The notes under the pieces were generated by a model. The model had not been told where the DNA came from, ran no database searches, and saw only the letters and a program-made list of their open reading frames with translations. This document shows, piece after piece, positions 40,759-58,260 of a stretch of 64,000 nucleotides of DNA. The stretch is from Actinomycetota bacterium (GTDB lineage: Bacteria > Actinomycetota > Thermoleophilia > Solirubrobacterales > Solirubrobacteraceae): positions 1 to 64,000 of the forward strand of contig VAYS01000002.1 of assembly GCA_005883215.1 (NCBI GenBank), given 5' to 3'. Position 1 is the first letter of the stretch. The number at the start of each line of letters is the position of its first letter. A program made the position numbers and the translations under genes.

Positions 40759-40760
40759 CC

Positions 40761-41663: not shown

Positions 41664-41666
41664 TTT
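41661..41666 (+). promoter_or_regulatory. -10 box TAGTTT before the third GT2 gene
   Basis: TAGTTT, formed by the preceding stop codon and the next bases, ends 7 bases before ATG 41674. It could add an internal leaderless transcript within the run. Confidence 0.4.
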
Positions 41667-41673
41667 GCCGGCC

Positions 41674-42696: not shown

Positions 42697-44327
42697 CGAC
42701 GCCCGCGGGCGCCCGCGGAGTGCTGGCTTGGGCGTGGGCGCCGCGGCGGCGCCCGGAGGTCGTCCTGGCCGCGTTGCTCGGGCTGTGGTCGCTGGTGGCG
42801 CTGGCCGTGCTGCTCGTCCACGTCGGCGGGGGGGAGGTGGTCGGGATCCACACCGCCGGCTTTAACGGCTCCGATGGGCTTCAGGTCGACGACCACCTCC
42901 AGTACCTGGCGTGGGCGCGCGACGCCGGCGAGCACGTGCTGATCTCAAACCCGTTCGACACCCGGCCCGACCCGCACCTGTTCCTCGACCCGGTGCTGGC
43001 GCCGTCGGGACTGGCGTGGCGGCTGGGGCTCAGCCTCCAGCTCGCCTACCTGCTGTGGAAGCCGGTGGCGGTCGCCGCGCTGTTCTGGGGGTTCGCCGCC
43101 TACGTGCGCCGCCTGGTGGGCCCCGATCCGGGGCTGCGCTTCCTGGCGCTCGCGCTGGCGCTGTTCTATTTCACCCCGGCCACGGCGCTGGCCGACTGGT
43201 TAAGCGCGGGTTTCAACCTGCGGTTCGGGACCGAGGTGATCGGCCTGGAGACGTTCACCGCCGGCTTTCCCTGGGGCGGCTACAGCGGCACGCTGGCGGT
43301 CGCCGGCATGCCGCTGTTCCTGCTCGGCATCGAGCGGGTGCTCGACCCCGCCCGCCGCGCGCCTGGACGCTCGGCCCGCTTTTACGCGGTCGGGGCCGGC
43401 CTGGCGGGGATGACGGCCTCCTGGCTTCACCCCTGGCAGGGGATCACCCTGCTGGTGATGGTCGTCGGCCTGGTGGTCTGGGGACGCTTGGACCGCCGCT
43501 ACCTGGCGCTGGCGGTGCCGGTGGCCCTGGCCGCCGCGCCGCTCGTCTACTTCGCCGCGCTCTCTCGCACCAGCTCCTCGTGGGGCCTGTCCTCGCACGT
43601 CGTCGACTACGCCCACTTGGGCGCCTGGTTCTGGGCGGGGATGGCCCCCCTGACGCTGGCGCTGGTGGGCTGGGTGCGCCGACCCGGCGCCGACGTGCAG
43701 GAGCGCCTGCTGCGTCTGTGGCCGGTGGCCGCACTGCTCGTGTACTTCGGCCTGCGTCGCACCTGGTTCTATCACTCGCTGGTCGGCCTCAGTCTTCCGT
43801 GCGCGGTGCTCGCGGTTCGCGGCTTCGGCGCGCTGGCGCGCCGCGGGGCGTGGCCCCGGGGGCTCGTCCGGACGGCCGGCGGCGCCGTCGCCCTGGCGCT
43901 GACCGTCCCGGGCATGGTGTGGGCGGTAGGCGAGCTCGACCGCACACGGGCGGCGCATTTCGTGAGGACCGACGAGGCCCGGGCGCTGGGCTACCTGGAT
44001 CGCCTGCGCCGCCCGGGCGCGGTGCTGGCCGCCCAGCCACTGGGCCTGGTGGTGCCCGCGTTCACCGGCCGCCACACCTGGGTGGGCCACTACAACTGGA
44101 CGCCGCGCTACCAAGCGCGAGTGGGGCAGGCGGCGGCGCTGTTCGGCGGGCGCCTGGGCGCCGCCGACTCCACCCGGCTGGTGCGCGACTCCGGAGCGCG
44201 GTTCGTGGTCGCCCGGTGCGTCGACCACGCAGAGCTCTCTCGGCTGCTGGCCCCGCGCCTCGCGTCGGTGCGACGCTTCGGCTGCGCCGGCGTCTATGAG
44301 CTGCGGACCGGGCGGGCGGGCAGATGA
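42693..44327 (+). CDS. Polytopic membrane protein, GT-C-like
   Basis: 544 aa with roughly 10-12 hydrophobic helices and a C-terminal extracytoplasmic domain (about 425-544). The first outer loop has DGLQVDDHLQYLAWARDAG, with acidic residues where GT-C enzymes carry catalytic Asp/Glu, followed by NPFDTRPDPHLF. It has no clear family name. By fold and context it is probably a glycosyltransferase acting on polyprenyl-linked sugars outside the membrane. GTG 42693 overlaps the preceding stop by four bases, and the stop overlaps the next start (ATGA). Confidence 0.77.
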   Translation: MTTPAGARGVLAWAWAPRRRPEVVLAALLGLWSLVALAVLLVHVGGGEVVGIHTAGFNGSDGLQVDDHLQYLAWARDAGEHVLISNPFDTRPDPHLFLDPVLAPSGLAWRLGLSLQLAYLLWKPVAVAALFWGFAAYVRRLVGPDPGLRFLALALALFYFTPATALADWLSAGFNLRFGTEVIGLETFTAGFPWGGYSGTLAVAGMPLFLLGIERVLDPARRAPGRSARFYAVGAGLAGMTASWLHPWQGITLLVMVVGLVVWGRLDRRYLALAVPVALAAAPLVYFAALSRTSSSWGLSSHVVDYAHLGAWFWAGMAPLTLALVGWVRRPGADVQERLLRLWPVAALLVYFGLRRTWFYHSLVGLSLPCAVLAVRGFGALARRGAWPRGLVRTAGGAVALALTVPGMVWAVGELDRTRAAHFVRTDEARALGYLDRLRRPGAVLAAQPLGLVVPAFTGRHTWVGHYNWTPRYQARVGQAAALFGGRLGAADSTRLVRDSGARFVVARCVDHAELSRLLAPRLASVRRFGCAGVYELRTGRAGR

Positions 44328-45091
44328 GCGAGGACGAAGGTCCCCGCACCAGTGCTGACCCCCCCCACGCCGCCGCCCGCCGCTACGACCAGGCCTGGCG
44401 CGACGTCTACGGGGACATACAGGACCTCGGTCCGGTGCACCGCCACCTGCGCCGCATCCTGGTCGCCGTGCTCGCCGACCTGCGCTACGCGGACGCGCTC
44501 GAGATCGGCTGCGGCGCCGGGCACAACCTGGCCCTGCTGGCGGGTGAGCGCCCCGCCGGCGCGATCGCCGGAGCCGACGTCTCGGGCGAAGCGTTGCGGC
44601 GCGCCCGCCGGCGCCACGACGGCAGACTGTTCGAGCTCGACATCGAGCGCGCGGCGCTGGCCGGCGCCTGGGATCTCGTCTTTAGCTCGCTCGTGCTCGA
44701 GCACCTGGCCGACGACGAGGCGGCGCTGCGCCACATGCGGGCGATGACCCGGCGCCACGTCCTCATCGCCACGATCGCCGGCGACCGGGAGCGCTACCTC
44801 CCCTACGAAGCCCGGATCGGCCACGTGCGCAACTACCGCCGGGGTGAGCTCGAGGCCAAGCTAGAGCGCGCCGGACTGGCGGTGCGGCGCGCGATCTACT
44901 GGGGCTTTCCCTTCTACTCGCCGCTCGCCCGCCGGGCCCAGCGGCGCTGGCGCCCGGAGCCCTCCTTCGGGGCGGGCGCCCGGATCGCTGCCCGCGCCCT
45001 GCACGCGCTGTATTGGCTGAACTCCTCGCGGCGCGGCGACCTGCTGATCGTGCACGCCGAGGTCGGCGAGGCAGCTTCAATGGGGGCCTAG
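44324..45091 (+). CDS. Class I SAM-dependent methyltransferase
   Basis: 255 aa. Motif I is LEIGCGAGHNLALL near residue 60, motif II GADVSGEAL near 83, and the post-motif FSSLVLEHLADDEAAL near 122 is typical of methyltransferase 11/12 domains. The C-terminal part is Arg-rich with an amphipathic stretch. ATGA overlap with the membrane protein upstream makes it the last gene of the 39.8-45.1 kb run. It overlaps the convergent ATP-grasp gene by 15 bases. Substrate unknown. Confidence 0.87.
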   Translation: MSEDEGPRTSADPPHAAARRYDQAWRDVYGDIQDLGPVHRHLRRILVAVLADLRYADALEIGCGAGHNLALLAGERPAGAIAGADVSGEALRRARRRHDGRLFELDIERAALAGAWDLVFSSLVLEHLADDEAALRHMRAMTRRHVLIATIAGDRERYLPYEARIGHVRNYRRGELEAKLERAGLAVRRAIYWGFPFYSPLARRAQRRWRPEPSFGAGARIAARALHALYWLNSSRRGDLLIVHAEVGEAASMGA

Positions 45092-46144
45092 CCGGCCCCA
45101 GTCCTCGACCAGCGTCCCCGCGGCATCGGCGTGGTCGAGCCTCCCCGTGCTCTGGAGCTCCGCCACGGCCTGTGCGGGTAGGTACAGCTCGTTGAAGTAG
45201 CGCACCACGGTCCCGTGCCGGGCGTCGGCCATGCCGCGGGCCGGCTCGCCGAGCGCCAGGTGGCGCACCGCCTCCTCGACCTCGTTGAAGCCCAACCGCG
45301 CGCGCATCGGGGTGGTCCCCGAGAAGCGCACGTTGAGCTCGAAGGGCACTGGTCTTCCCTCGCGCAGGCGCAGCTGCACGTTGCAGGGCCCGACCGGGGC
45401 CAGGCGCTCGACGACGCGCTCGCTGAGGGCGCGGATCTCCGGATAGGCCCCCACCTCCGCGCGCACCGTCGTTCCCAGGCGCAGCTCGCGCCGCATCGCG
45501 ACGCTGCCCCTCAGCCTGCCCTCGCGGTCGCACAGGCATCCGACGGTGTACTCGCCCCCGGCATCGTCCAGGTGCTCCTGCACGAGCACGTCCTCGCGGC
45601 CGACCAGGCGCTCCAGCGCGGCCCCGTCGGGGACGATCACCACGCCGCGCGCCGTGCGCCCGCGCCGGGGCTTGGCGACCAGCGGATAGCCGCACTCGGC
45701 GGCCAGCGCGGCCACGGCGCCCTCGTCGTCGCCGGCGGCGAAGCGGGGGTGGGGAAGGCCGGCATCGGCCAGCCAGCGGCAGGTGGCCAGCTTGTCGTGG
45801 CCGATCTCGAAGGTGTCCGGAGGCGAGACCACGCACACCGCGCCGGTGCGCTCGGCGAGCTGCTCGGCCGCGGGCGAGAGCGTCGCCAGGACCGGCTCCA
45901 CGCCGGAGAGCACCGCACGCACCCCCTCGGCCTGGCAGACCTCCGTCAGCCAGTCGAGGAAGGCGGGGTCCTCGGCGTAGGGGCAGATGTAGGCGCGCTC
46001 GGCGGTGTACAGGCCGGCGGAGTAGGGCGTCACGCACGCCGCCACGATTCGCGTGGGCAGCTCGGCGATGGCCAGCGCCTTGAGGATCCCCTGGGTGACG
46101 CTGGATCCCGTGCCGATCGCCAGCGCGGTGGGCGCGTCGCTCAT
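45077..46144 (-). CDS. ATP-grasp family ligase
   Basis: 355 aa. The N-terminal pre-ATP-grasp Rossmann region (residues 1-110: ALAIGTGSSVTQG) is followed by the ATP-grasp domain with KLATCRWLADAGLPHPRF near 120, the ATP-binding YPLVAKPRRGRTARGV near 155, VQEHLDDAGGEYTVG near 190 and the metal-binding FELNVRFSGTTPM near 268. Such CarB-like enzymes join a carboxylate to an amine via an acyl phosphate. In a glycan cluster it may add an amino acid or other amide to a sugar or lipid (inference). Convergent with the methyltransferase gene. Confidence 0.85.
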   Translation of the reverse strand: MSDAPTALAIGTGSSVTQGILKALAIAELPTRIVAACVTPYSAGLYTAERAYICPYAEDPAFLDWLTEVCQAEGVRAVLSGVEPVLATLSPAAEQLAERTGAVCVVSPPDTFEIGHDKLATCRWLADAGLPHPRFAAGDDEGAVAALAAECGYPLVAKPRRGRTARGVVIVPDGAALERLVGREDVLVQEHLDDAGGEYTVGCLCDREGRLRGSVAMRRELRLGTTVRAEVGAYPEIRALSERVVERLAPVGPCNVQLRLREGRPVPFELNVRFSGTTPMRARLGFNEVEEAVRHLALGEPARGMADARHGTVVRYFNELYLPAQAVAELQSTGRLDHADAAGTLVEDWGRLGPH

Positions 46145-46193: not shown

Positions 46194-47177
46194 TCACTCC
46201 GCCCAGGACCGCTCTAGCGGCGCGTCGGCGTCGCGCTCGGAGGCGGGACGCGACTCGTCGCCGTCGAGCTCGACGTCGACCACGTACAGGGGCCGGCCCT
46301 TGACCTGCTCGAAGATCTTGCCCACGTAGAGCCCGGTGACCCCGCCGGCGATGGTGAGAAAGCCGGTGAGCAGGAGGATCAGGATTGGCAGGGCCGTCCA
46401 GTCGGGCAGATGGCGTCCGAGCGCGAACACCACCAGCGCGTAGGCGACCAGCGCCAGGCCGGCCAGCGCGATCACGAACCCGGCGTACACCATCCAGCGC
46501 AGCAGCGCGGTGGACTGAAAGAAGATCCCGTCGATCGCCACCCGCACCAGCGCGCCGAAGCTGTAGGAGCTCTGGCCCGCGTAGCGCTCGTCCTGCTCGA
46601 TGTCGATTACGGCCTGGCGAAAGCCCAGCCAGTCCACGATCAGCAGGTACTGGCGGTCCTGGTCGCCCAGGCGCAGATAGGCGTCGACGACCTTGCGCGA
46701 CAGGAGGCTCAGGTTGGGCATGTTGTTCTCGAGCCGTCCGCCCACCAGCGCCTTGCGCACATAGAAGTACACGCTGCCCGCCAGGCGGCGAAGCGCCGGC
46801 TGTCGTCGGCGCGGCCGGCGGGTGAGCACGACGTCATAGCCTTCGAGCGCGCGCGCGTAGAGGCGCTCGAGCTGCTCGGGAGGGTCCTGCAGGTCGCAGT
46901 CCATGACCACCGCGTAACGGCCGCGGCTGCGCTCCAAGCCGGCGGTGATCGCGGCGTGCTGGCCGAAGTTGCGCGACAGACGCACCGCCCGCACGTGGGC
47001 GTCAGCGCGAGCCAGCTCGCACACGACCTCCCAGGCCGCGTCGGGGCTGCGGTCGTCGACGAGGATGACCTCGTGCGCGGCGGTGATCCGATCCAGCGTT
47101 TCGCGCAGGCGGCGGTGGAGCTCCCGCAGCGAGTCGGAGCAGCCGTAGACCGGTATGACGACGCTCAGCTCGACCAT
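46194..47177 (-). CDS. GT2 polyprenyl-phosphate glycosyltransferase (GtrB/ArnC-like)
   Basis: 327 aa. LSVVIPVYGCSDSL at the start, VILVDDRSPDAAW near residue 39, the metal site MDCDLQDPPEQLERL near 92 and RNFGQHAAITAGL near 70, followed by two C-terminal transmembrane helices (about 230-255 and 265-290). This is the classic plan of enzymes that load a sugar on undecaprenyl phosphate, giving the donor used by GT-C proteins. Three such membrane proteins are encoded nearby. ATG 47177 is chosen because the protein begins two residues before the first strand. The acidic C-terminal tail faces the cytoplasm. Confidence 0.9.
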   Translation of the reverse strand: MVELSVVIPVYGCSDSLRELHRRLRETLDRITAAHEVILVDDRSPDAAWEVVCELARADAHVRAVRLSRNFGQHAAITAGLERSRGRYAVVMDCDLQDPPEQLERLYARALEGYDVVLTRRPRRRQPALRRLAGSVYFYVRKALVGGRLENNMPNLSLLSRKVVDAYLRLGDQDRQYLLIVDWLGFRQAVIDIEQDERYAGQSSYSFGALVRVAIDGIFFQSTALLRWMVYAGFVIALAGLALVAYALVVFALGRHLPDWTALPILILLLTGFLTIAGGVTGLYVGKIFEQVKGRPLYVVDVELDGDESRPASERDADAPLERSWAE

Positions 47178-47262
47178 GTCTGGCCCCGCGGCACGGAACA
47201 GGGACGGTACCAACGAGCAGAGCAATGGCCGGGCGCTCACGCTCACGCCCACCGCGCCCGCC

Positions 47263-47268
47263 TATAGT
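47263..47268 (+). promoter_or_regulatory. -10 box TATAGT, leaderless methyltransferase gene
   Basis: TATAGT ends 8 bases before GTG 47277. Confidence 0.6.
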
Positions 47269-47276
47269 CCGCCGGC

Positions 47277-48152
47277 GTGCTGGCGCGCCCGGACGAGATA
47301 GCCGCGATCCAGTGGTACCACACGATCGAGCTTCCGGGAGGGGTCGTCACGCCCGGCTTCTACGACCACCGGCCGCTACTCGCCCACCTGCCGCTTCCGG
47401 CGTCGCTGGCGGGCCAGCGCTGCCTGGACATCGCCGGCAGCGACGGGTTCTGGGCATTCGAGATGTGGCGCCGCGGCGCGCGCGAGGTGATCAGCGTCGA
47501 TCTCGAGGACGGCTCGCGCCAGGACTGGCAGGGGGCGTCCCACGCCCGCCGGGCCCTGGCCGCGTCGAGCGGTCGCTGGGAGGGTGATACGGGCCGCACG
47601 CGCCGCGGCTTCGAGCTCGCCCGGGCCGCGCTGGGGGCCGACGTCGAGCGCCGCGACGTGTCCGCCTACGACGTGTCCCCCAAGGCGGTGGGGACGTTCG
47701 ACTTCGTGTTCATGGGCAGTCTGCTCCTGCACCTGCGCGACCCGGTGGGGGCCCTGATCGCCGCCCGCAGCGTGACCGCCGGCCGGTTCCTGGTGCTGGA
47801 GCCGGTGCTGCTGTCGCTCTCGCTGCTGTTTCGCCACACCCCACTGGCGTCGCTGTGGCAGCTGGACGAGCCACGCTGGTGGCTGCCCAACATCGCCGGG
47901 CTGCGGCGGTTCGTGCACGCCGCCGGCTTTCGCGTCCTCGACTCCGGAGGTCCACGCGCCCAGCGCTTCGGTCGCGCCTTCCCGCGCCTTCCTCCCCGCC
48001 GGCGCCCGACGTTCTCCGAGCTGGTGTTCTGGTCGCTGGTGCGCCCGCTCGGCGTCCCCTCCGCGTGGGTGCTGGCCGAGCCGGTGGCGTCCGCGGCGCA
48101 GCTACCCGCCGACGAGCCGCCTGCTCGGGTGCCGGCGCTGGGGTGGATCTGA
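47277..48152 (+). CDS. CmoB/DUF1698-like SAM methyltransferase (paralogue 1)
   Basis: 291 aa. It starts with the paralogue signature QWYHTIELPGGVVTPGFYD, then motif I LDIAGSDGFWAFEM near residue 50, VDLED near 73 and FMGSLLLHLRDPVGAL near 143. The core resembles the wybutosine/CmoB-type (DUF1698) methyltransferase domain, but the N-terminal part of CmoB is absent and the location among glycan genes argues for a sugar or lipid substrate rather than tRNA. The next gene is a paralogue starting 5 bases after this stop. Start by leaderless -10 box. Confidence 0.83.
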   Translation: MLARPDEIAAIQWYHTIELPGGVVTPGFYDHRPLLAHLPLPASLAGQRCLDIAGSDGFWAFEMWRRGAREVISVDLEDGSRQDWQGASHARRALAASSGRWEGDTGRTRRGFELARAALGADVERRDVSAYDVSPKAVGTFDFVFMGSLLLHLRDPVGALIAARSVTAGRFLVLEPVLLSLSLLFRHTPLASLWQLDEPRWWLPNIAGLRRFVHAAGFRVLDSGGPRAQRFGRAFPRLPPRRRPTFSELVFWSLVRPLGVPSAWVLAEPVASAAQLPADEPPARVPALGWI

Positions 48153-48157
48153 GCGTG

Positions 48158-48976
48158 ATGGGCGCGCCCGCCGAGGTCGAGCTGCGCGAACGCATCGGCG
48201 GTCACCCGCTGTGGTACCACACGCTGGAGCTCGCCCCCGGCGTGCTGACCCCAGGCTGGTTCGACCTGCGGCCGATCGTCGGGCGCTTGCCGTGGCCCGA
48301 CGTGCGGGGCAAGCGCTGCCTGGACGTGGGGACCTACGACGGGTTTCTCGCCTTCGAGCTCGAGCGCCGCGGCGCCCGCGAGGTGATCGCCACCGACATC
48401 GGCGACGAGCGAGCGTGGGACTGGCCGCCGGACATGCGTGGCACCGGCCCGACCAAGCTCACCGAGCTGGTGTCCGGCGAGCGCGCGCGGGGCTTTGAGA
48501 TCGCCCACGACGCCCTGGGCTCCTCGGTCAGACGGCTGGAGTGCAGCGTGTACGACCTCTCGCCAGAGACGGTGGGACGCTTCGACGTCGTCGTATGCGG
48601 GAGCCTGCTCCTGCACCTGCGCGACCCCCAACGCGCCCTGGAGGCGATCCACGGCGTGTGCGATCAGGCGCTGCTGTCGGCCGAGGAGGTGCGCCTGGGG
48701 CTATCGGCCCTTCACCCGCGCCGCCCCCTGGCCGAGCTCAACGGCTCGGGGGAGCTGCTGCAGTGGTGGGTGCCCAACTCGGCCGGGCACCGACGCATGT
48801 TGTTCGCCGCGGGCTTCGAGGTGCTCCGCGCCACGCGCCCGTACGCGGTCCCGTTCGGCGTCGGTCATCCGGGCCCGAACGACCTCGGTGCCCGCCTGCG
48901 GCTGTGGCGGCGCCGGCTGGTCTTGGGCCACGCGGGCGTACCCCACGCCGCGGCGCTGGCTCGCCCCCGCCTCTAA
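48158..48976 (+). CDS. CmoB/DUF1698-like SAM methyltransferase (paralogue 2)
   Basis: 272 aa. PLWYHTLELAPGVLTPGWFD at residues 18-37, motif I LDVGTYDGFLAFEL near 55, TDIGDE near 77 and CGSLLLHLRDPQRAL near 148. It is close to the gene upstream and to the minus-strand gene at 52704. The region after about 185 (QWWVPNSAGHRRML) matches WWLPNIAGLRRF in paralogue 1. ATG 48158 or GTG 48155 may be used; cotranscription with paralogue 1 is likely. Confidence 0.83.
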   Translation: MGAPAEVELRERIGGHPLWYHTLELAPGVLTPGWFDLRPIVGRLPWPDVRGKRCLDVGTYDGFLAFELERRGAREVIATDIGDERAWDWPPDMRGTGPTKLTELVSGERARGFEIAHDALGSSVRRLECSVYDLSPETVGRFDVVVCGSLLLHLRDPQRALEAIHGVCDQALLSAEEVRLGLSALHPRRPLAELNGSGELLQWWVPNSAGHRRMLFAAGFEVLRATRPYAVPFGVGHPGPNDLGARLRLWRRRLVLGHAGVPHAAALARPRL

Positions 48977-49006
48977 CCGGCGGCCCGCCCGGGTCGGGCC
49001 CGCCGG
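48977..49006. terminator. Bulged hairpin between convergent genes
   Basis: CCGGCGG (48977-48983) pairs with CCGCCGG (49000-49006), continued inside by CCCG/CGGG with one bulged C and a 7-base loop. It fills the gap between two convergent stops. Confidence 0.45.
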
Positions 49007-49010
49007 GCGG

Positions 49011-51083
49011 TCACGGTCCGGGGCTCGGCGGCGCGCGGTAGAGCGCCAGCCGCCGGGTGGCGCTGACCGCGACGAAGCCCAAGCGCGAGAGCCACCGCTC
49101 CTCGCGCGTCCGGGGGAGGGGCGGCTGCCCACGGCCCACGAGCACGAGGTCCCAGCGGCCGCGACGGACCGCCGCCTGGAAGTTCAGCCGGCGGGTGTAC
49201 TGGCGCAGCAGGCCCGCGGTCACGGGGCCGATGTAGGCGACGCGGTTGCGCAGGCGGGGACCGAAGGAACAGAACACCGGTGACAGCCCGTTGACGCTCC
49301 AGACCCCCACCAGGCCCACTCGGTGGCCGGCCCCGGCGTGCTGGTCGATCCAGGCGATCGGCGGCTCGGCGGCGCCACAGGTGTGGCGCGCGAAGCGCTG
49401 CTGGTCGAGGCGACCGGCGGCGCCCACCACGAGCACGGCGGCCACCCCGACGGCCGCCCAGATCGGCCAGCCCATGGCCGCGAGGCGACCGCGCCCCCGC
49501 AGCGCCAGCCACCCGAGGGCCCCTGCCGCCAGCGCGACCGCCACCCCGGCCAGGAGCGACGCGCCCGACACCGGCGGCCCGCGGTGGATCCCGTCGACCA
49601 CGGCCGCCAGGGCGACCAGCTCGGCGGGCACCCGGCGCCGCGGCGAAGCGCCCGCCCACGCCGCCGACAGCGCGGCGGCGAGCAGCAGCGCCGGGATCAG
49701 CCAGCGCAAGGTGGTGTCGGCCTGCACCGGCATGTTTTTGGCCCCGAAGGCCGAGCCCGGAGTCGCGGCATAGAGCAACGCGATGCCCAGGGCGGTCAGC
49801 CCCACGCCCCACACCGCCAGCTCCCTAGTGGGGCGGCGGCCGGCGCGACGCAGCGCCGGCGCGGAGGCCGCCAACGCGGCCACCAGCCCGACTGCGACCA
49901 CGGCGCCCGAGACCCCCAGGCGGGTGCGAAAGCCCGGCAGCACGTAATGGTCGATGACCGAGGGCTTGCCGAGATAGCCGACGATCGTGTAGCCGACGCG
50001 ATCGAGGATCGAGTGGCGCGGGGAGGGGAACGGCTGGAGCCCGAGGATCGAGAAGCGCTGGGGAAACAGCGGGTTGCCGGATTCGACGACGTTTCGCAGC
50101 ATCCACACCCCGCCCGCCGCCGCGATCGCGCCGACCACGATCGCTCCGTCGCGGGCGACCCGTTTGATGCCCCGCCGGGCCACCAGCGCCAGGGCTCCCC
50201 AGCACGCGAGCAGAGCGACCGCCGAGGTGACGCCGTACCACTTGGTCCCGACCGCGACCCCGAGCGCCGCTCCGGCGAGCACGAGCTCTGAGCGCCGGCC
50301 CTCGCGCTCGTAGCGCAGGGCGAACACCACCCCGGTCACGAACGCGAACAGCATGACCACGTCGGGCAGGCCGTCCAGCGCGTAGTCCGAGAGCGCGGGA
50401 ACCACCGACACCGCGGCCGCGAAGGCGACGGCCGTCGAGCGCGGCGCACGCAGCTCGCGGGCGAGCGCGTACACCGCGAGGGCGGCGAGCGCGAAGAACG
50501 GCAGCTCGACCAGGCGGGCGAAGGCCGCCAGGCGCCAGGGCAACACGGCGCCCAGGACGAGCGTGTCACCGTTGTTGGGGTAATAGCCGGTGACGAAGTA
50601 GGGGAAGAGCTGGTCGATCTGCCACAGCGAGCCGGACTGGATCCAGCGTGCGACGCCCGGCAGGTGAAAGTTGAGGACGTCGATGTCCGTCGGCTGCTGG
50701 GCGATCAGGCCACGCAGACGGGCCAGCTCGAATCCCACGGCGCCGGTCGCCGCCAACGCGGCGATGGCGACCGACTCCCGGCGATCGTGGGATCGCGGAC
50801 GCCTGGCGGGCGGCTCCGGACGCCCGACCGGGATGCGTGTGGCCACGACGGCGAGCACCCCGGCGGCGGCGAGCACGGTTCCCCGCGTCAGCACTCCGAG
50901 CACCAGTGGGATCACGTGGACGGCCAGGGCGCCGAGGGTGAACAGCAGCGCGCCGGCGAGCACACGGGGAGATCCGGCGAGGTGCCCGTAGCGCCGGCGA
51001 AGGGTGAGCCAGGCGGCGACCGCCACCCCGGCTGTCGTGCCCAGGAAGAACCCGAGCCCGGCGACGTATTGGGGCAGCGGCAT
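49011..51083 (-). CDS. Large polytopic membrane protein, GT-C-like
   Basis: 690 aa, about 12-14 hydrophobic helices with a C-terminal soluble domain (about 600-690). After the third helix lies IDVLNFHLPGVARWIQSG, similar in position to the catalytic loop of PMT/ArnT-type glycosyltransferases, and YYPNNGDTLVLG further on. It most likely transfers a sugar from polyprenyl phosphate in the outer leaflet (inference). ATG 51083 starts at the first helix. The divergent methyltransferase starts only 24 bases away, with an AT-rich element TATTGT between them. Confidence 0.78.
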   Translation of the reverse strand: MPLPQYVAGLGFFLGTTAGVAVAAWLTLRRRYGHLAGSPRVLAGALLFTLGALAVHVIPLVLGVLTRGTVLAAAGVLAVVATRIPVGRPEPPARRPRSHDRRESVAIAALAATGAVGFELARLRGLIAQQPTDIDVLNFHLPGVARWIQSGSLWQIDQLFPYFVTGYYPNNGDTLVLGAVLPWRLAAFARLVELPFFALAALAVYALARELRAPRSTAVAFAAAVSVVPALSDYALDGLPDVVMLFAFVTGVVFALRYEREGRRSELVLAGAALGVAVGTKWYGVTSAVALLACWGALALVARRGIKRVARDGAIVVGAIAAAGGVWMLRNVVESGNPLFPQRFSILGLQPFPSPRHSILDRVGYTIVGYLGKPSVIDHYVLPGFRTRLGVSGAVVAVGLVAALAASAPALRRAGRRPTRELAVWGVGLTALGIALLYAATPGSAFGAKNMPVQADTTLRWLIPALLLAAALSAAWAGASPRRRVPAELVALAAVVDGIHRGPPVSGASLLAGVAVALAAGALGWLALRGRGRLAAMGWPIWAAVGVAAVLVVGAAGRLDQQRFARHTCGAAEPPIAWIDQHAGAGHRVGLVGVWSVNGLSPVFCSFGPRLRNRVAYIGPVTAGLLRQYTRRLNFQAAVRRGRWDLVLVGRGQPPLPRTREERWLSRLGFVAVSATRRLALYRAPPSPGP

Positions 51084-51095
51084 GCGGGCGCGGCG

Positions 51096-51101
51096 ACAAT
51101 A
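51096..51101 (-). promoter_or_regulatory. AT-rich core shared by divergent promoters
   Basis: TATTGT on the minus strand ends 12 bases before ATG 51083. On the plus strand the overlapping CAATAA region lies just before ATG 51108. With only 24 bases between start codons, the two promoters must overlap. Confidence 0.4.
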
Positions 51102-51107
51102 ACAGCG

Positions 51108-51731
51108 ATGCCTGGGCCCCCGGATGCTCGGCGCGTGCTCGTCTCGGCGCGCGTCTACTCGGCGCTCCAGCGCGCGCTCGGAGCCGCCCGCGTGCGGCGC
51201 GTACTGGTCGCCGAGCACCTTCGCCCGGCGCCCGGGGAGCGCGTCCTGGACCTCGGCTGCGGCCCTGGTGACGTGCGCGCCGAGCTCCCCGCCGTGGAGT
51301 ACGTGGGGGTCGACCACAGCGAGCGCTACCTGGCCGCCGCCCGGGCCCGGCACGCCGGCCGGGGTCGCTTCGTGCGGGCAGACCTGCGCCTGCTGCGTCT
51401 GGAGGACGAGGAGCCGTTCGACGCGGCGATCGCGATCGGCGTGTTGCACCATCTCGACGACGGCGAGGGAGCGGCGATGCTGGCCTCGGCGGCGCACGCC
51501 CTCAAGTCGTCTGGGCGTCTGATCACGATCGACCCGGCCCTGGGTGACCGAGAGTCGCCGCTGGCGCGCTGGCTCATCCTCCGGGATCGCGGCCGCCACC
51601 TGCGCAGCAGCGAGGGCTATGCGGGCCTTGCCCGCGGGCGCTTCGATCACGTCGTGGCGAGCACCCGCCACGACCTCGCCCGCGTGCCCTACTGCCACGC
51701 GATCCTCGAATGCACAGAGCCGCGCCCGTGA
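51108..51731 (+). CDS. Class I SAM-dependent methyltransferase
   Basis: 207 aa. Motif I is VLDLGCGPGDVRAEL near residue 47, GVDHSERYL near 67, IAIGVLHHLDD near 110 and LKSSGRLITIDPA near 135. Methyltransferase 11-type domain; the GVLHHL motif is common in enzymes acting on small molecules or lipids. It overlaps the next GT2 gene by four bases (GTGA) and is divergent from the GT-C-like gene. Substrate unknown. Confidence 0.86.
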   Translation: MPGPPDARRVLVSARVYSALQRALGAARVRRVLVAEHLRPAPGERVLDLGCGPGDVRAELPAVEYVGVDHSERYLAAARARHAGRGRFVRADLRLLRLEDEEPFDAAIAIGVLHHLDDGEGAAMLASAAHALKSSGRLITIDPALGDRESPLARWLILRDRGRHLRSSEGYAGLARGRFDHVVASTRHDLARVPYCHAILECTEPRP

Positions 51732-52693
51732 CCGGGCCCGCCGCTTCGGTGGTCGTCGCCACCCGCGACCGCCCCGTCCGGCTGCGCTGGCTGCTCAACG
51801 CGCTCGCCGACCAGGCCACCGGCGAGCGAATAGAGGTGATCGTCGCCCACGACTCGCGCGGCCCCGAGACCGAGCGGCTGTTACGCACTCATCCCCTGCG
51901 CGACGAGGGCCGACTCTCGCACCTGACCTTCCCCGCCCACACCCAGCAGGCGGCGGCCAAGCGCGACGCCGGCTGGCGCGCCGCTTCGGCCCCGCTGATC
52001 CTGTTCACCGACGACGACTGCCGTCCGAGCGCCGACTGGGTGGCGCGGGCGATCGCCGCCGCCCAAGCCCATCCGGGTGCCGTCCTGCAGGGCAGGACGG
52101 CAGCCGATCCCGACGAGGCCGCGGTGTTGCGGGGCGCGCCCTGGGCCCAGAGCCAGACCGTCGAGCCGCCCACCGTGTGGGCGGAGACGTGCAACATCGC
52201 CTACCCCCGCGCCCTGCTCGAGCGAGTCGGCGGCTTCGATCCGCGCCTGGCGGTAGGGGAGGACACCGATCTGGCCCTGCGCGCCCGGGCCCAGGGGGCC
52301 GCGCAGGTGCCCGTGCCCGGGATGCTCGTCTACCACGCCGTGCACGCTCCCTGGCTGCCGGCCCGCCTGCGCTCGCTCAGGCGATGGCAGGACATGCCCG
52401 CCGTGGTCAAGCGCCATCCCGTGCTCCGCCGCTCCGTCTACGCGCGCGTGTTTTGGAAGCGCGAGCACGCCGCCCTGTGCGCCGCGGCCCTCGCCCCGAT
52501 GCTGATACGCCGCTCGGAGCTGGCGTGGGGGCTGGCCCTGCCCTGGCTGGCGCTGTCCCTCGGGCACCGGGGCGCCAGCGCCCGCGGCATCGCGCGCTCG
52601 ATCTCCGAGCTGCCGGGGCGGGTCGCCATCGACGTCCTCGAGACCGCCGAGCTGGTGTGCGGTAGCGCGCGCCACCGCACCCTGCTCGTCTAG
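51728..52693 (+). CDS. GT2-family glycosyltransferase
   Basis: 321 aa. ASVVVATRDRPVRLRWLL, VIVAHDSRGPET, AAKRDAGWRAA near residue 80, the DXD region LFTDDDCRPSADW near 97 and the ED motif VGEDTDLALRARAQG near 180. It is similar in plan to the GT2 at 41674 (both have TDDDCR...DW and YP.ALLERVGGF-type segments), suggesting duplication. GTG 51728 overlaps the upstream stop, which decides it over ATG 51710. A hydrophobic stretch near 255-275 may bind the membrane. Confidence 0.86.
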   Translation: MTGPAASVVVATRDRPVRLRWLLNALADQATGERIEVIVAHDSRGPETERLLRTHPLRDEGRLSHLTFPAHTQQAAAKRDAGWRAASAPLILFTDDDCRPSADWVARAIAAAQAHPGAVLQGRTAADPDEAAVLRGAPWAQSQTVEPPTVWAETCNIAYPRALLERVGGFDPRLAVGEDTDLALRARAQGAAQVPVPGMLVYHAVHAPWLPARLRSLRRWQDMPAVVKRHPVLRRSVYARVFWKREHAALCAAALAPMLIRRSELAWGLALPWLALSLGHRGASARGIARSISELPGRVAIDVLETAELVCGSARHRTLLV

Positions 52694-52703
52694 GGCGGTC
52701 CCC

Positions 52704-53432
52704 TCAGGCGGCGGCGGGCGGCGTACCGTGGCGCGCGTGCAGGACCACGTGGCGCACCGAGAAGCCCCGCCGGGAGCGCAGCTTGAGCCGGGCCCGCTGC
52801 TCGACGTCGTCAAAGCCGGCCGTCCACAACATGCGCCTCCAGGTCCGCGCGCTCGGCTCCCAGAAGACCACCGACTTGGGCCGGTCGGCCCGGTAGCGGG
52901 TCACCGGAACGGGGAGCAGTTCGATCAGCGGGTCGTAGGCCTCGGCGCAGATGAACCGCCCCTGGCACAGGTCGGCTATGCGCTCGAGCGCCAGCAGCTG
53001 GTCGCGCAGATGGATGAGCACCGAGCCGCAGAACACCAGGTCAAACGTGCCCAGCTCGCCAGGGTCGGCCTCGTAGATGTTGCCCTCGACGCGCCGCACC
53101 GAGGATCCCAGCGCTTCGTGGGCCACGCGGAAGCCGTCCCCGCGGGCCGCGCAGGTGTCTGCCTCGCCGCGTCGCCGCGGCGGCCAGTCCAGCTCGGGCT
53201 CGTGCTCGAGGTCCAGGGCCACCACCTCACGCGCCCCGCGGCGCTCCATCTCAAACGCCCAGAAGCCGTCGAAGGTGCCGACGTCCAGCGCCCGCATGCC
53301 GTCCATGCGCTCAGGCAGGCCGTAGCGCGCCACGTAGGGGCGCAGATCGAACATGCCGTCGGTGACGCGCCCGGGTGCTAGCTCGATGGCGTGGTACCAG
53401 CTCAGCTGGTCGGCCCGAGCGAGTACGTCCAC
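52704..53432 (-). CDS. CmoB/DUF1698-like SAM methyltransferase (paralogue 3)
   Basis: 242 aa. LSWYHAIELAPGRVTDGMFD at residues 10-29, motif I LDVGTFDGFWAFEM near 49, LDLEHEPELDWP near 71 and CGSVLIHLRDQLLAL near 128. It has the same architecture as the two genes at 47.3-49.0 kb, with a shorter C-terminus. GTG 53432 is preceded by TACACT with 7 bases between. It converges on the GT2 gene. Confidence 0.83.
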   Translation of the reverse strand: MDVLARADQLSWYHAIELAPGRVTDGMFDLRPYVARYGLPERMDGMRALDVGTFDGFWAFEMERRGAREVVALDLEHEPELDWPPRRRGEADTCAARGDGFRVAHEALGSSVRRVEGNIYEADPGELGTFDLVFCGSVLIHLRDQLLALERIADLCQGRFICAEAYDPLIELLPVPVTRYRADRPKSVVFWEPSARTWRRMLWTAGFDDVEQRARLKLRSRRGFSVRHVVLHARHGTPPAAA

Positions 53433-53439
53433 CGCCGGC

Positions 53440-53445
53440 AGTGTA
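53440..53445 (-). promoter_or_regulatory. -10 box TACACT, leaderless methyltransferase paralogue 3
   Basis: Minus-strand TACACT ends 7 bases before GTG 53432. It lies 4 bases downstream of the flippase stop. Confidence 0.55.
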
Positions 53446-53448
53446 GGA

Positions 53449-54969
53449 CTAGAGCGGCGCCTCGCCGGGCGTGAGCGGCGCCGACCTCGGCCCCCCGCCC
53501 ACCAGGTAACCCGCGACCTCGCGCAGCAGGCGTCGCTCGAAGGCGAAGGTGGCCACCACGGTGGCCGCCAGGTACGCCCCGAGCTCGCCCAGGGCGGCCC
53601 CCGGGCCGCGCGGCCCGTGCTCCAGCGCACGCGCGGCGAGCACGAGCGCTACCGGCGCGACCGTGGGGGCCAGCGCCCGGACGGCGTGCGCCACCGGCCG
53701 CAGCCCCGGCAGCAGGGCCTTGGCGTAGAGCGCTCGCACGATCAGGCTGACCAGCGTCGTCACCGCCATTCCCACGGCAAAGCCGTCCAGACCCTCCAGG
53801 ATCAGCAGCGGAAGCGCGCAGGCCAGGAAGGTGCCCAGCAGCGCCAGGCTCCAGACCGCGATCGGGCGTGTGTCGCCGCGCGCGCGGTAGAACGCGTCCC
53901 AGTTGAAGCCGATGTGGTTGGCGGCGGCGATCACCCCGAACGCCTCGATCAGGTGCACGCCCGGCCGCCAGCGCGACCCGAGCACGAAATCGACCAGGTC
54001 GGGGGCAAAGAGCGCCAGGCCGACCCCGAACGGGATACCCCACATGAGCGCGAGACGGTTGGACTTCACGAACGTCTCCAGCAGCAGGTCCACCCGGCTG
54101 CGGACGGCGCAGATCGACGGGTACAGGGTCTCGGTGAGGATCGAGTCCACCCGGTTTGCGTAGTCCGAGATCGAACCCGCGAGCACGATCACGCCGACGC
54201 TGGCCAGCCCGAGCGCCTGCTGGCCGGCCAGCACCGAGCTCTGGGCCATGACCACCGGCGCCAGGCCGGCGGCGAACAGCGGCCAGGAAAAGCTCGCGTA
54301 CTCCCGGACCCGCACCCGCTCCCAGCGCAGAGCCAGGCGATAGGGACACGACCGCAGGGCGACCAGCGCGCCCACCCACGCTCCGGCCAGCGTCCCCACC
54401 ACCAGGCTCCAGTAGCCGGCGCCGGCGATCGCCAGGCCCACGGTGACCGCGAACGCCACCAGCGGATCGGCCGCCTGCAGCCGACGCTGACGGACGAAGT
54501 CCAGGCGCCGGTAAAAGACCCACACCGGCGCCTGCAGCGCCGCGCCGAGCGGCGCCAGCGCCAGCACCAGCCCGGGGGCGATGAACTCCGGGTGATCGTA
54601 GGCCAGCGCCAGCACGGGGACCAGCAGCGCCATCGCCGCCGCCACCCCGGCCGACAACGCCAGCTCGAGGGTGAACGCCTGCTGGAAAGCGCGTTCCTGG
54701 TCGGCGTCGGACTGCTGGATATATTTGTCGCCGATCCCGACCTGCTTGAGCTGCAGCACGGTCCCCAGCGCGATGGCCAGGATTCCCCATACGCCGTACT
54801 GGCTCAGCGACAGGAACGCGGCCACCACGAACCCGCGCAGCAGCGACAGCGAGTAGAAGCCGATCAGATAGACGCCGTTGACCACAGCGCCGCGCGCCGT
54901 GAGCTGGCGAAGCGACCGGTCGCCCAGGTCGATGCGATCGGCGAGACCGGGGTCGGCCATGGCCCCCAT
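53449..54969 (-). CDS. Wzx-like polysaccharide flippase (MOP superfamily)
   Basis: 506 aa with about 12-14 hydrophobic helices and the plan of the polysaccharide transport proteins (RfbX/Wzx/TuaB): an N-terminal helix pair with LIGFYSLSLLRGFVVAAFLS, LSQYGVWGI, a conserved QQAFTLELALS loop and a Gly-rich end. Flippases of this type move undecaprenyl-linked oligosaccharides across the membrane, consistent with the surrounding glycosyltransferases. ATG 54969 or ATG 54960 may be the start. It is divergent from the GT4 gene, with 42 bases between starts. Confidence 0.87.
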   Translation of the reverse strand: MGAMADPGLADRIDLGDRSLRQLTARGAVVNGVYLIGFYSLSLLRGFVVAAFLSLSQYGVWGILAIALGTVLQLKQVGIGDKYIQQSDADQERAFQQAFTLELALSAGVAAAMALLVPVLALAYDHPEFIAPGLVLALAPLGAALQAPVWVFYRRLDFVRQRRLQAADPLVAFAVTVGLAIAGAGYWSLVVGTLAGAWVGALVALRSCPYRLALRWERVRVREYASFSWPLFAAGLAPVVMAQSSVLAGQQALGLASVGVIVLAGSISDYANRVDSILTETLYPSICAVRSRVDLLLETFVKSNRLALMWGIPFGVGLALFAPDLVDFVLGSRWRPGVHLIEAFGVIAAANHIGFNWDAFYRARGDTRPIAVWSLALLGTFLACALPLLILEGLDGFAVGMAVTTLVSLIVRALYAKALLPGLRPVAHAVRALAPTVAPVALVLAARALEHGPRGPGAALGELGAYLAATVVATFAFERRLLREVAGYLVGGGPRSAPLTPGEAPL

Positions 54970-55011: not shown

Positions 55012-56142
55012 GTGACCGGCTCGGCGGTCAGTGGGCGCGGGCTGCGCGTGGCGTTGCTCAGCCCGTGCACCTGGCCCGAGGTCCGGCGCGGCGCCGAGCG
55101 CATGTTCCGCGACCTGGCCGCCGGCCTGATCGCCCGGGGGCACGAGCCCCGGCTGCTCACCAGCCACCCGGGGTGGCCGCGTACGAGCGTGGAGGACGGC
55201 CTGATGGTGACCCGCCACTGGCGCCCGCCCGACGCCCGGCTGACCCGCCGCGGCTGGGAGGAGCACCTCACGCACGTGCCGGCCAGCTTCCTATCGCTGC
55301 GCCGCGCCGCTCCCGACTTGGCCCACGCCTCCCACGCCCCCGACGCCCTGGCCGCCGCCCGCTGGGCTCGCTGGCACGGCCGCCCGGCGATCTTCAGCTT
55401 CATGGGGATCCCCGACCGCCAGTGGCTGGTGGCGCGCCGCTTTCGGCTTCAGTGCATGCTCAGCGCCGTTCGCGGCTGCCACGCGGTGGTGGCGCTCTCG
55501 CGCACCGCCGCCCAGGAGTTCACCCGCTCCCTCGGCGTGCCCGCCCGGGTCATCAGCCCCGGCGTCGACCTCCGCGCCTTCTTGCCCGGCGGCGAGCGCT
55601 CTCCGGCTCCGCGGATCGTGTGCACCGCCCCCCTCGAGGTCCCCGAGAAGCGGGTCGGGCTGCTGGTCGCGGCACTGCCCCAGGTGCGCCGGGCCCACCC
55701 CGACGCGCAGCTGGTGCTCCAGCGCCCGAACGACGCCCGGCTGGCTGCGGCCGTGGCCTCCGAGCCCGGGGTGGAGCTGATGGACCCCGACCCCGGTCTG
55801 CTCCCCGAGGCCTATCGCCGCGCCTGGATCGCGGCGCTTCCGTCGCGCAGCGACGCCTTCGGGCTGGTGGTGGCCGAGGCGCTGGCCTGCGGCACGCCGG
55901 TGGTGGGCTCAGACCGCGGCGCCGTCCACGAGCTGGTCGATCGCCCCGAGGTCGGTCGACTGTTCTGCGGCGAGGATCCCTCCGCCGTGGCCCGCGCCCT
56001 GCTCGAGGCGCTCGAGCTGTCCCGCGACCCGGCGTGCGCCGCGGCCTGCCGGGCGCGCGCCGAGGAATTCTCGATCGACCGCTGCGTCGACGCCTACGCC
56101 GCGCTCTACCGCGAGCTGCTGGCCGGGTCCGACGGTGCTTGA
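55012..56142 (+). CDS. GT4-family glycosyltransferase
   Basis: 376 aa GT-B enzyme. The N-terminal domain has VALLSPCTWPEVRRGAERM, with the Gly-rich acceptor loop; the C-terminal domain has CTAPLEVPEKRVGLLV, PSRSDAFGLVVAEALACGTPVVGSD-type residues (EX7E motif with Glu in AEAL) and GRLFCGEDPSAVA. Retaining transfer from a nucleotide sugar, probably to a lipid-linked glycan at the cytoplasmic face. GTG 55012 begins a few residues before the first strand; the open frame upstream is antisense to the flippase. It overlaps the next gene by 8 bases. Confidence 0.9.
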   Translation: MTGSAVSGRGLRVALLSPCTWPEVRRGAERMFRDLAAGLIARGHEPRLLTSHPGWPRTSVEDGLMVTRHWRPPDARLTRRGWEEHLTHVPASFLSLRRAAPDLAHASHAPDALAAARWARWHGRPAIFSFMGIPDRQWLVARRFRLQCMLSAVRGCHAVVALSRTAAQEFTRSLGVPARVISPGVDLRAFLPGGERSPAPRIVCTAPLEVPEKRVGLLVAALPQVRRAHPDAQLVLQRPNDARLAAAVASEPGVELMDPDPGLLPEAYRRAWIAALPSRSDAFGLVVAEALACGTPVVGSDRGAVHELVDRPEVGRLFCGEDPSAVARALLEALELSRDPACAAACRARAEEFSIDRCVDAYAALYRELLAGSDGA

Positions 56143-56839
56143 GCAGAGCGCGGAGCGCATCCTGCGCGAGGTCGGCGAGCGGAGCCTGGTGCTCGACGTG
56201 GGTGGCTGGGCCAAGCCGTTCCCCCGCGCCGACTGGGTGATCGACCTGCACCCCCATGCCACCCGCGGCCTCTACGACTACGACCGCGAGAGCGTCGAGG
56301 AGCGCTTTGGCCCCGACACCTGGGTGCAGCGCGACATCTGCGATCGCCAGCCGTGGCCGTTCGCCGAGCGCCAGTTCGACTTCGCCGTGTGCGCGCAGAC
56401 GCTAGAGGACCTCCGCGACCCGCTATGGGTGTGCGCCGAGCTCACGCGGGTGGCTCGCGCCGGCTACATCGAGGTGCCCTCGCGCCTGGAGGAGCAGAGT
56501 CTGGGCGTCGACGGGGCCCAGTGGGCGGGCTGGAGCCACCACCGCTGGCTGTGCGACGTCGACGAGGGCGCCATCCGCTTCGTGCACAAGCCTCACCACC
56601 TGCACGCGCGAGCCGATCGCCATCTGAGCGCCGCCTTCCTGGCCCGGCTCTCGCCCACCCAGCGCGTAGCGGCCCTGTGGTGGCGGGAGTCGTTCTCGTT
56701 CACGGAGGAGATATTCACCGCCGGCGAGGCGCTGGACGCCTACCTGCGCGAGCCGGTGCTCGCGCACGAGCCGGCGCGGGTCAGCTCACCCGGCAGCGCA
56801 CGAGGGTGGCGAGCACGCGCACGCCGTCGAAGGCGGTGA
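56135..56839 (+). CDS. SAM-dependent methyltransferase-like protein
   Basis: 234 aa. LVLDVGGWAKPFPRADWVIDL at residues 18-38 replaces the usual Gly-rich motif I with a shortened form; FAVCAQTLEDLRDPLWVC near 90 matches the post-motif of methyltransferase 11 proteins. The last 20 residues are Arg/Ser-rich and overlap the convergent GT2 gene by 59 bases, so the natural stop may have been lost or the tail is dispensable. GTG 56135 overlaps the GT4 stop. Catalytic competence is uncertain because of the altered motif I. Confidence 0.73.
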   Translation: MLEQSAERILREVGERSLVLDVGGWAKPFPRADWVIDLHPHATRGLYDYDRESVEERFGPDTWVQRDICDRQPWPFAERQFDFAVCAQTLEDLRDPLWVCAELTRVARAGYIEVPSRLEEQSLGVDGAQWAGWSHHRWLCDVDEGAIRFVHKPHHLHARADRHLSAAFLARLSPTQRVAALWWRESFSFTEEIFTAGEALDAYLREPVLAHEPARVSSPGSARGWRARARRRRR

Positions 56840-57506
56840 GCTTCTTGCCCTCCTCGCGCGAGCGCGCGCGGTAGGAGACCGGCACCTCGTAGATGCGCTC
56901 ACCGGCGAGCAGCACGCGCGCGGCGAGCTCGGGCTCGATGGCAAAGCCCCCTTCGCGCAGGGGCAACGAGCGCAGGAGGTCGGTGCGCATGAGTTTCAGG
57001 CAGCACATGATGTCCGACATCCAGGTGTTGTAGAGGACGTTGCCGGCGAACGTCACGGCCCGATTTCCGAGCACGTACCAGAAGCCGTAGGCCGAGTGCG
57101 AACGGAACCCCCGGGCGCCGAAGACGACGTTGGTCTCACCGGCCAGCAGCGGCTCGAGCAGCGCGGGCAGGTCGGCGGGGTCGTATTCGAGGTCGGCGTC
57201 GAAGATCGCCACCAACCCTCCCGTGGCGTGGGTCAGACCGGTGCGCACCGCGGCCCCCTTGCCGCCGTTGTCCTCCCGGTGGACCACCCGCACTGGCGCC
57301 GGCCACGTCGTCTCGGCCAGCAGCTCCCGTGACCCGTCGGTGGAGCCGTCGTCGATGACCACCAGCTCGGCCAGAGGGGCGGGTAGCTCCACCTCGAGCA
57401 GGCGCTCGATGGCTCGCGCCACGGTGGCGCGCTCGTTGAACACGGGCATGAGAACGGTCAGGGCCTGCGCGTCCGGCGGGGGCTGAGGCGCGGTCCCGGC
57501 GCTCAT
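56781..57506 (-). CDS. GT2-family glycosyltransferase (DPM1-like)
   Basis: 241 aa. LTVLMPVFNERATVARAI, LVVIDDGSTDGSREL near residue 48, GKGAAVRTGL near 83, the metal site IFDADLEYDPADLP near 100 and DIMCCLKLMRTDLL near 165. It is soluble, without C-terminal helices, like dolichol- or polyprenyl-phosphate mannosyl/glucosyltransferases of the short class. It could supply a lipid-linked sugar donor for the GT-C proteins. ATG 57506 overlaps the stop of a possible small ORF (ATGA). Confidence 0.89.
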   Translation of the reverse strand: MSAGTAPQPPPDAQALTVLMPVFNERATVARAIERLLEVELPAPLAELVVIDDGSTDGSRELLAETTWPAPVRVVHREDNGGKGAAVRTGLTHATGGLVAIFDADLEYDPADLPALLEPLLAGETNVVFGARGFRSHSAYGFWYVLGNRAVTFAGNVLYNTWMSDIMCCLKLMRTDLLRSLPLREGGFAIEPELAARVLLAGERIYEVPVSYRARSREEGKKLTAFDGVRVLATLVRCRVS

Positions 57507-57678: not shown

Positions 57679-58260
57679 ATGATCGTGCTCGGCATCGATC
57701 CCGGCATCGCCAACACCGGCTACGGCGTGGTGGTACGCCGCAGCGGCCGGCTCGCCGCGCTCGACGGCGGGGTGATCCAAACGCGCTCAGAGCTCGCCCC
57801 CGAGCGGCGCCTGACGCTGGTCCACCAGCGCCTGCTCGACCTCATCGACGAGCACACGCCCGGGGCGATGGCCCTCGAGGAGCTGTACTTCGGCCAGAAC
57901 GCCGGCAGCGCGTTCGCGGTGGGCCAGGCCCGGGGGGTGGCCGTCCTGGCGGCCGGCCAGCGCGACGTCCCCTGCGCCTCCTACACCCCGCAGCAGGTCA
58001 AGGCGGCGGTGTGCGGAAACGGCCGCGCGCCCAAGGAGCAGGTGGCACGCATGGTCGCCACGCTGCTCGGGCTGCCCCAAGCGCCCGGCGCCGACCACGC
58101 CGCGGACGCCCTGGCGGTGGCGATCTGCCACGTGCACCGCGCGCCGCTGGCCGCCGCGGTCGCCGACCACCCCGATACGCGACGGGGCGCCAGCCCGATC
58201 CGCATCGCCCGCCGCCGGGGGGCGCCGCGAAAGACGCCCGACGCGCGGGGCAAGCGATGA
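57679..58260 (+). CDS. ruvC: Holliday junction resolvase RuvC
   Basis: 193 aa. RNase H-like fold with the catalytic acids in LGIDPGIANTGYG (Asp7), ALEELYFGQN (Glu67) and GADHAADALAVAIC (C-terminal Asp pair). It cuts Holliday junctions in the RuvABC complex. A Lys/Arg-rich tail of about 25 residues extends it. A weak -10-like CAGAAT ends 8 bases before ATG 57679. No LexA-type box was seen in front of it. ruvA overlaps by four bases. Confidence 0.95.
   Translation: MIVLGIDPGIANTGYGVVVRRSGRLAALDGGVIQTRSELAPERRLTLVHQRLLDLIDEHTPGAMALEELYFGQNAGSAFAVGQARGVAVLAAGQRDVPCASYTPQQVKAAVCGNGRAPKEQVARMVATLLGLPQAPGADHAADALAVAICHVHRAPLAAAVADHPDTRRGASPIRIARRRGAPRKTPDARGKR

What the first reader, a model, noticed from the sequence alone, without database searches (positions are those of the whole stretch)
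47277..53432. Three CmoB/DUF1698-like methyltransferase paralogues within 6 kb
The genes at 47277, 48158 and 52704 (minus) share a WYH.(I/L)EL...G.(V/L)T.G.(F/Y)D N-terminal motif, an unusual motif I with (G/S)-x-DGF-AFE and a (L/I)HLRD motif. They lack the N-terminal region of CmoB and sit among glycosyltransferases. The likely explanation is repeated duplication to methylate different positions of one glycan, a role not usually given to this family.
Basis: partly seen in the sequence, partly recalled or inferred. Interest (0 to 1): 0.52.

Follow-up and report, generated by a model that had tools for sequence, protein, structure and literature searches.

The report
Three old glycan methyltransferase genes
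A soil actinobacterium carries three distantly related, CmoB-shaped methyltransferase genes inside a sugar-chain assembly island; they are old, separately kept gene lines that probably add methyl groups to a surface sugar chain, though nobody has yet tested this.

Summary
In detail: three paralogues (38-49% identical pairwise), with the stated motifs, lie at 47277-48152 (+), 48155/48158-48976 (+) and 52704-53432 (-), and nowhere else in the held genome. They sit in an 18-kb glycan-assembly island between yebC and ruvC. CmoB is their closest solved structure (Z 19-20, clearly above the rest) for the two models made, beginning at CmoB residue 67-79, so they lack CmoB's N-terminal tRNA platform. 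The three residues that read carboxy-SAM in CmoB (K91, Y200, R315) are replaced, and no CmoA or CmoB was found in the genome, so plain SAM is the likely donor. They match no CmoB or TIGR04290 model at its cut-off; TIGR04290 is nearest. Best reading: three SAM-dependent O-methyltransferases acting on different acceptors in one glycan pathway, in islands that mix ancient subfamilies. Activity and acceptor are untested. Ordinary chemistry, moderately interesting family.

The parts
47277..48152 (+). MT1: class I SAM methyltransferase with CmoB-type fold, most diverged of the three
   Evidence: AF2 pLDDT 90.8, CmoB top by VIA Z 19.5; clade of 12 rows support 99
48155..48976 (+). MT2: same family, starts 2-5 bases after the MT1 stop
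   Evidence: AF2 pLDDT 97.0, CmoB top by VIA Z 20.3; clade of 31 rows support 83
52704..53432 (-). MT3: same family, most widespread subfamily of the three (23 of 37 other genomes with a strong copy)
   Evidence: clade of 27 rows support 99; counts; no structure predicted
46194..47252 (-). GT2 glycosyltransferase, polyprenyl-phosphate type (PgfS/ArnC-like by NCBIfam, below cut-offs)
49011..51098 (-). membrane glycosyltransferase of the PMT type (PF02366)
50664..51731 (+). class I methyltransferase of another subfamily (domain in the C-terminal half of this ORF; true start not determined)
51710..52693 (+). GT2 glycosyltransferase
53449..54969 (-). Wzx-type polysaccharide flippase (PF13440)
   Evidence: relatives near family genes in 12 of 37 genomes
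55012..56142 (+). GT4 glycosyltransferase
56135..56839 (+). MetW-like methyltransferase-fold protein
   Evidence: within 15 kb of a family copy in 19 of 37 genomes
56781..57506 (-). GT2 glycosyltransferase
39814..42696 (+). three consecutive GT2 glycosyltransferases (39814-40758, 40761-41663, 41665-42696)
42720..44327 (+). large protein without Pfam or NCBIfam match, membrane-type by its hydrophobic sequence
44324..45091 (+). class I methyltransferase of another subfamily
45077..46144 (-). ATP-grasp enzyme, over the cut-off of NF009402 (carbamoyl phosphate synthase-like)
39016..39765 (+). yebC, left border of the island
57679..58260 (+). ruvC, right border of the island

Best explanation
MT1, MT2 and MT3 are SAM-dependent O-methyltransferases that methylate sugar hydroxyls (different residues or positions) of the oligosaccharide built by this yebC-ruvC island, before or during its export by the Wzx-type flippase. 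They share the CmoB fold from about CmoB residue 70 on, without the tRNA platform. SAM sits in the Rossmann fold; the conserved W20-Y21-H22 segment (MT2 numbers) covers the donor where CmoB has W89-R90-K91, and the nearly invariant H154 is the likely general base. Shown here: homology, fold of MT1 and MT2, residue swaps, glycan context, old separate origins. Inferred: O-methylation, sugar acceptor, the roles of H22 and H154, separate acceptors.
For: Island content: six GT2, one GT4, a PMT-type membrane protein and a Wzx flippase between yebC and ruvC. In 30 other genomes, 110 of 302 genes within 4 kb of family copies were drawn and scanned: 19 of 110 GT2, 11 of 110 GT4; of 110 control genes drawn from 144, neither reached the 25 families listed, so at most 2 (Fisher with 2 as bound p 5.6e-5 and 0.009). 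CmoB top in structure for MT2 (Z 20.3, 231 residues, 2.9 A; next non-CmoB 17.4, 175 residues) and MT1 (Z 19.5, 223 residues, 2.8 A; next 16.9). Cx-SAM residues replaced: K91 by H in 174 of 177, Y200 by L in 112 of 177 (then I, V), R315 by H in 111-112 of 177. CmoB H201 matches H154, kept in 175 of 177 and in 82 of 82 profile-found rows; PMC4482062 (passages) reports that the H201 alanine mutant is still active and notes ho5U's low pKa, so a kept His fits a less acidic acceptor such as a sugar hydroxyl (my inference). Separate old clades; 14 of 37 other genomes hold MT2 and MT3, 4 of 37 all three.
Against: No activity, acceptor or glycan structure is known. Gene neighbourhood cannot tell sugar from lipid or other acceptors in the same pathway. 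One plasmid copy lies away from annotated glycan genes, and 9 of 37 genomes hold a single strong copy, so a multi-position scheme is not general. The island holds other methyltransferases that could do the sugar methylation. The K91-H22 match depends on trimming CmoB to residues 70-323; untrimmed, MAFFT put W20 on W42, and hhalign did not align the N-terminal part of either form. R315 is in a poorly aligned end. The MT2 clade is only moderately supported (83; no starred set).
Confidence: 0.68

Rival explanations
1. They are tRNA wobble-uridine modifiers of the CmoB kind that happen to lie among glycan genes.
For: CmoB is the best solved-structure match by profile (1e-14) and by fold.
Against: N-terminal platform absent; all three Cx-SAM residues replaced; no CmoB or CmoA over cut-off in the genome; up to seven strong copies per genome; glycan neighbours in relatives.
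Confidence: 0.04
2. They are glycan-pathway methyltransferases, but act on something other than a ring hydroxyl: a terminal phosphate, a uronate carboxyl, an amino-sugar nitrogen, or a carbon of a keto-sugar nucleotide.
For: Class I methyltransferases do all of these (general knowledge). In the Paraconexibacter antarcticus island a family copy lies between a glucose-1-phosphate cytidylyltransferase-like gene and a CDP-glucose dehydratase-like gene (both below the models' cut-offs), as a nucleotide-sugar C-methyltransferase might.
Against: The window island has no nucleotide-sugar dehydratase among the genes scanned; Pfam shows no extra C-methyltransferase domain in the three.
Confidence: 0.2
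3. The three arose by recent duplication at this locus and are largely redundant.
For: They are neighbours and the only copies in the genome. MT2-MT2 tandem pairs occur in 3 genomes (G010, G088, G094).
Against: One clade rejected, p-AU 9.4e-9; MT1+MT2 as sisters rejected, p-AU 0.0015 (the MT2+MT3 and MT1+MT3 tests did not finish). MT2 and MT3 have closer kin in other genomes (66% and 68% identity).
Confidence: 0.02
4. They tailor a secreted small glycoconjugate (a glycosylated natural product) rather than a surface polymer.
For: Sugar-modifying natural-product methyltransferases (AtmM, EvdMO1, RebM) are among the matches below CmoB.
Against: No polyketide or peptide synthetase gene among the island genes scanned; a Wzx flippase and a polyprenyl-phosphate-type GT2 fit a lipid-linked glycan.
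Confidence: 0.06

Closest known systems
CmoB, tRNA U34 carboxymethyltransferase (4qnu, 4qnv, 4qnx, 4p7c, 7ct8)
   Same: Same overall fold from CmoB residue about 70 to the end; W89 and H201 kept.
   Different: No N-terminal tRNA platform; K91, Y200, R315 replaced; no CmoA or CmoB over cut-off in the genome.
TIGR04290 family methyltransferase (Rta_06860 type)
   Same: Nearest curated model; profile match 99.6%, E 3e-24, over 188 columns; shares the W-(Y/F)-H start, H154 and HLR; beside four glycosyltransferases in Tistrella mobilis.
   Different: 50-65 bits against a cut-off of 300; separate branch; keeps Tyr at the Y200 place.
Sugar O-methyltransferases AtmM (6uv6), EvdMO1 (5t38), RebM (3bus)
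   Same: Class I fold; act on sugars (general knowledge, recalled for RebM and EvdMO1); Z 16.7-17.1 for MT2.
   Different: Lower Z and shorter aligned length than CmoB; only weak sequence matches.

Membership tests
CmoB | CmoB catalytic fold | tested here: met
   Seven CmoB entries head the list for MT2 and for MT1; MT3 was not modelled
CmoB | N-terminal ~100 residues for oligomer contacts and tRNA binding | tested here: not met
   Models align from CmoB residue 67-79 on; MT3 is 242 aa
CmoB | K91, Y200, R315 contacting the Cx-SAM carboxylate | tested here: not met
   H22, L153, H264 in MT2 (CmoB trimmed); roles from PMC4482062 passages
CmoB | Curated CmoB score (TIGR00452, NF011650) | tested here: not met
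   14.7-28.8 bits against 275 and 209
CmoB | CmoA in the genome to supply Cx-SAM | tested here: not met
   one match of 26.8 bits against 193.3; assembly 92.9% complete
CmoB | Carboxymethylation of ho5U34 tRNA | not testable with these tools
   needs enzyme assay
PF08003 (Methyltransf_9, DUF1698) | Gathering score 23.8 | tested here: not met
   18.4 (MT1), not listed at E<=1 (MT2), 14.3 (MT3)
TIGR04290 | Cut-off 300 bits | tested here: not met
   65, 58.4, 50.4
PF13489 (Methyltransf_23) | Gathering score 27 | tested here: inconclusive
   MT1 24.9, MT2 31.2, MT3 39.6
Glycan O-methyltransferases | Located with glycan-assembly genes, here and in relatives | tested here: met
Glycan O-methyltransferases | Methyl transfer to a sugar hydroxyl | not testable with these tools
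   needs enzyme assay or glycan analysis

The most novel reading that the evidence does not exclude
A CmoB-fold methyltransferase lineage without the tRNA platform has become a toolkit of glycan decorators in Solirubrobacterales and kin: several ancient subfamilies are shuffled among glycan islands, often near yebC-ruvC, so that the set each strain holds writes its own methylation pattern on its surface sugar chains, perhaps as a defence against phages or for desiccation.
Probability: 0.3. Interest if true: 0.6.

Novelty: new variant of a known kind. Interest (0 to 1): 0.42.

Why it matters
It would show that CmoB's catalytic domain has relatives with a quite different job, and give at least three candidate sugar methyltransferase specificities to test. 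Complete genomes of named organisms carry the family (Conexibacter sp. DBS9H8, Paraconexibacter antarcticus), which makes glycan analysis feasible. My literature searches pairing Thermoleophil-, Conexibacter or Solirubrobacter with glycan and methylation terms found no paper.

Tried and rejected
Rejected: tRNA role (residues, missing platform, no CmoA). Rejected: local triplication. Led nowhere: phage records (no match for MT3); searches for TIGR04290 and DUF1698 in papers (0 papers each); for Thermoleophil-, Conexibacter and Solirubrobacter with glycan terms (0 each). A search for CmoB-like names and PF08003 gave 17 papers, seen as a listing only; many concern Plasmodium, and from titles and abstract starts none reports a glycan methyltransferase of this family. 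A search on O-methylated O-antigen terms gave 12 papers, listing only. No pocket comparison was possible: no model coordinates are in the Python box.

Limits: the 76 loci were found with patterns holding WYH and DGF(W/L)AFE, so motif conservation there is partly circular; in the 82 rows found by profile alone H22 is kept in 79 and H154 in 82. Genes in relatives were called by my own GC3 script, which can miscall. Domains under 50 bits or covering under 120 profile positions were dropped, and those under 180 aa before the larger tree. The weaker matches (62 of 201 genomes, own included, at E<=1e-15) were left out of the counts; those use the 37 other genomes with copies of at least 150 bits. 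Control genes came from nine genomes, neighbours from 30.
Full report
OBSERVATION. The three genes exist at the stated coordinates with the stated WYH and HLRD motifs; motif I is DGF(W/L)AFE. MT2 starts within five bases of MT1's stop. They are homologues (47% and 38% identity to MT1; E 2e-52 and 7e-51 from MT2) and the only matches at E<=0.001 in the 3.29-Mb assembly.

SURROUNDINGS. The block between yebC (39016-39765) and ruvC (57679-58260) holds six GT2 glycosyltransferases, one GT4, a PMT-type membrane glycosyltransferase, a Wzx-type flippase, an ATP-grasp enzyme, a large protein without a match, three further methyltransferase-fold proteins, and MT1-3. A GT87, an amine-oxidase-like flavoprotein, another methyltransferase and a phosphomannomutase (PMM) lie just before yebC. 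Around strong copies in other genomes of the order, YebC lies within 15 kb in 11 of 37, RuvC in 7, PMM in 9, the MetW-like protein in 19, the flippase in 12; contig and stretch ends make these lower bounds.

FAMILY. Of 201 genomes of the order (own included), 62 match the profile at E<=1e-15. Of these, 37 besides the own genome have copies of at least 150 bits; 28 of the 37 have two or more, and in 19 of those 28 two copies lie within 12 kb on one contig. In a pattern search of named genomes the kin came mostly from Actinomycetota, with some from Chloroflexota, Pseudomonadota and others (80 best of 97 kept, 76 loci).

ANCESTRY. Trees of 149, 180 and 66 rows place MT1, MT2 and MT3 in different clades: MT1 with 12 rows (99), MT3 with 27 (99), MT2 with 31 (83, less firm). 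Forcing the three together is rejected (p-AU 9.4e-9), as is MT1 with MT2 (0.0015). Of 37 other genomes, 8 have MT1, 18 MT2, 23 MT3, 14 both MT2 and MT3, and 4 all three. So this is a kept assortment of old paralogues, not a fresh local duplication. MT2-clade pairs do lie side by side in three genomes.

KINSHIP TO CmoB. Profile search of solved structures puts a CmoB first (1e-14). The MT2 model (pLDDT 97.0) matches CmoB at Z 20.3 (231 residues, 2.9 A), the best other entry at 17.4. The MT1 model (pLDDT 90.8) gives 19.5 (223 residues, 2.8 A) against 16.9. Both begin at CmoB residue 67-79. [quoted passage not shown] With CmoB trimmed to 70-323, two MAFFT modes put K91 on H22 (H in 174 of 177), Y200 on L153, R315 on H264, H201 on H154 (175 of 177). 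Untrimmed, the N-terminal match fails, so the K91 mapping is likely, not proven; the structural range (model 1 on CmoB 70) fits it without a gap. The genome has no CmoA or CmoB over cut-off.

CONTEXT TEST. Of 302 neighbour genes (within 4 kb, 30 genomes), 110 drawn at random were scanned: 19 GT2, 11 GT4, 12 with Methyltransf_11. Of 110 control genes (from 144 in 16 stretches), GT2 and GT4 are not among the 25 families listed, whose last have two members, while Methyltransf_11 has two. With 2 as the upper bound, Fisher p is 5.6e-5 and 0.009.

MECHANISM. Shown: fold, residue swaps, context, ancestry. Inferred: the enzymes use plain SAM; the W-Y-H segment lies over the donor; H154 acts as general base. 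In CmoB the matching His is dispensable, and the authors note the low pKa of ho5U; a sugar hydroxyl would need a base, which fits its near-invariance here. Separate clades kept together suggest separate acceptors.

NOVELTY. Class I sugar methyltransferases are well known. For a CmoB-fold branch with several old subfamilies in glycan islands I found no described function in my searches. I call it a new variant of a known kind.

Noticed in passing
window 39016-58260: An 18-kb glycan island separates yebC from ruvC; in several relatives glycan genes lie beside yebC-ruv too, which suggests a preferred site.
   Followed up: partly
window 56135-56839: MetW-like methyltransferase-fold protein lies near family copies in 19 of 37 genomes; its role is unknown.
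   Followed up: partly
L119:11855-14285: In Paraconexibacter antarcticus a family copy sits between glucose-1-phosphate cytidylyltransferase-like and CDP-glucose dehydratase-like genes.
   Followed up: partly
L079:9677-11590: A Dehalococcoidia open frame holds two family domains in tandem, with two more copies downstream.
   Followed up: no
L213:8974-9687: A Methylobacterium nodulans plasmid carries a copy (42.6% to MT2) with no glycan gene annotated in 13 kb.
   Followed up: no
window 42720-44327: Large hydrophobic protein with no Pfam or NCBIfam match; possibly the polymerase or a membrane glycosyltransferase.
   Followed up: no
window 45077-46144: ATP-grasp enzyme over the cut-off of a carbamoyl-phosphate-synthase-like model in a glycan island; no homologue near family genes in the other loci examined.
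   Followed up: no
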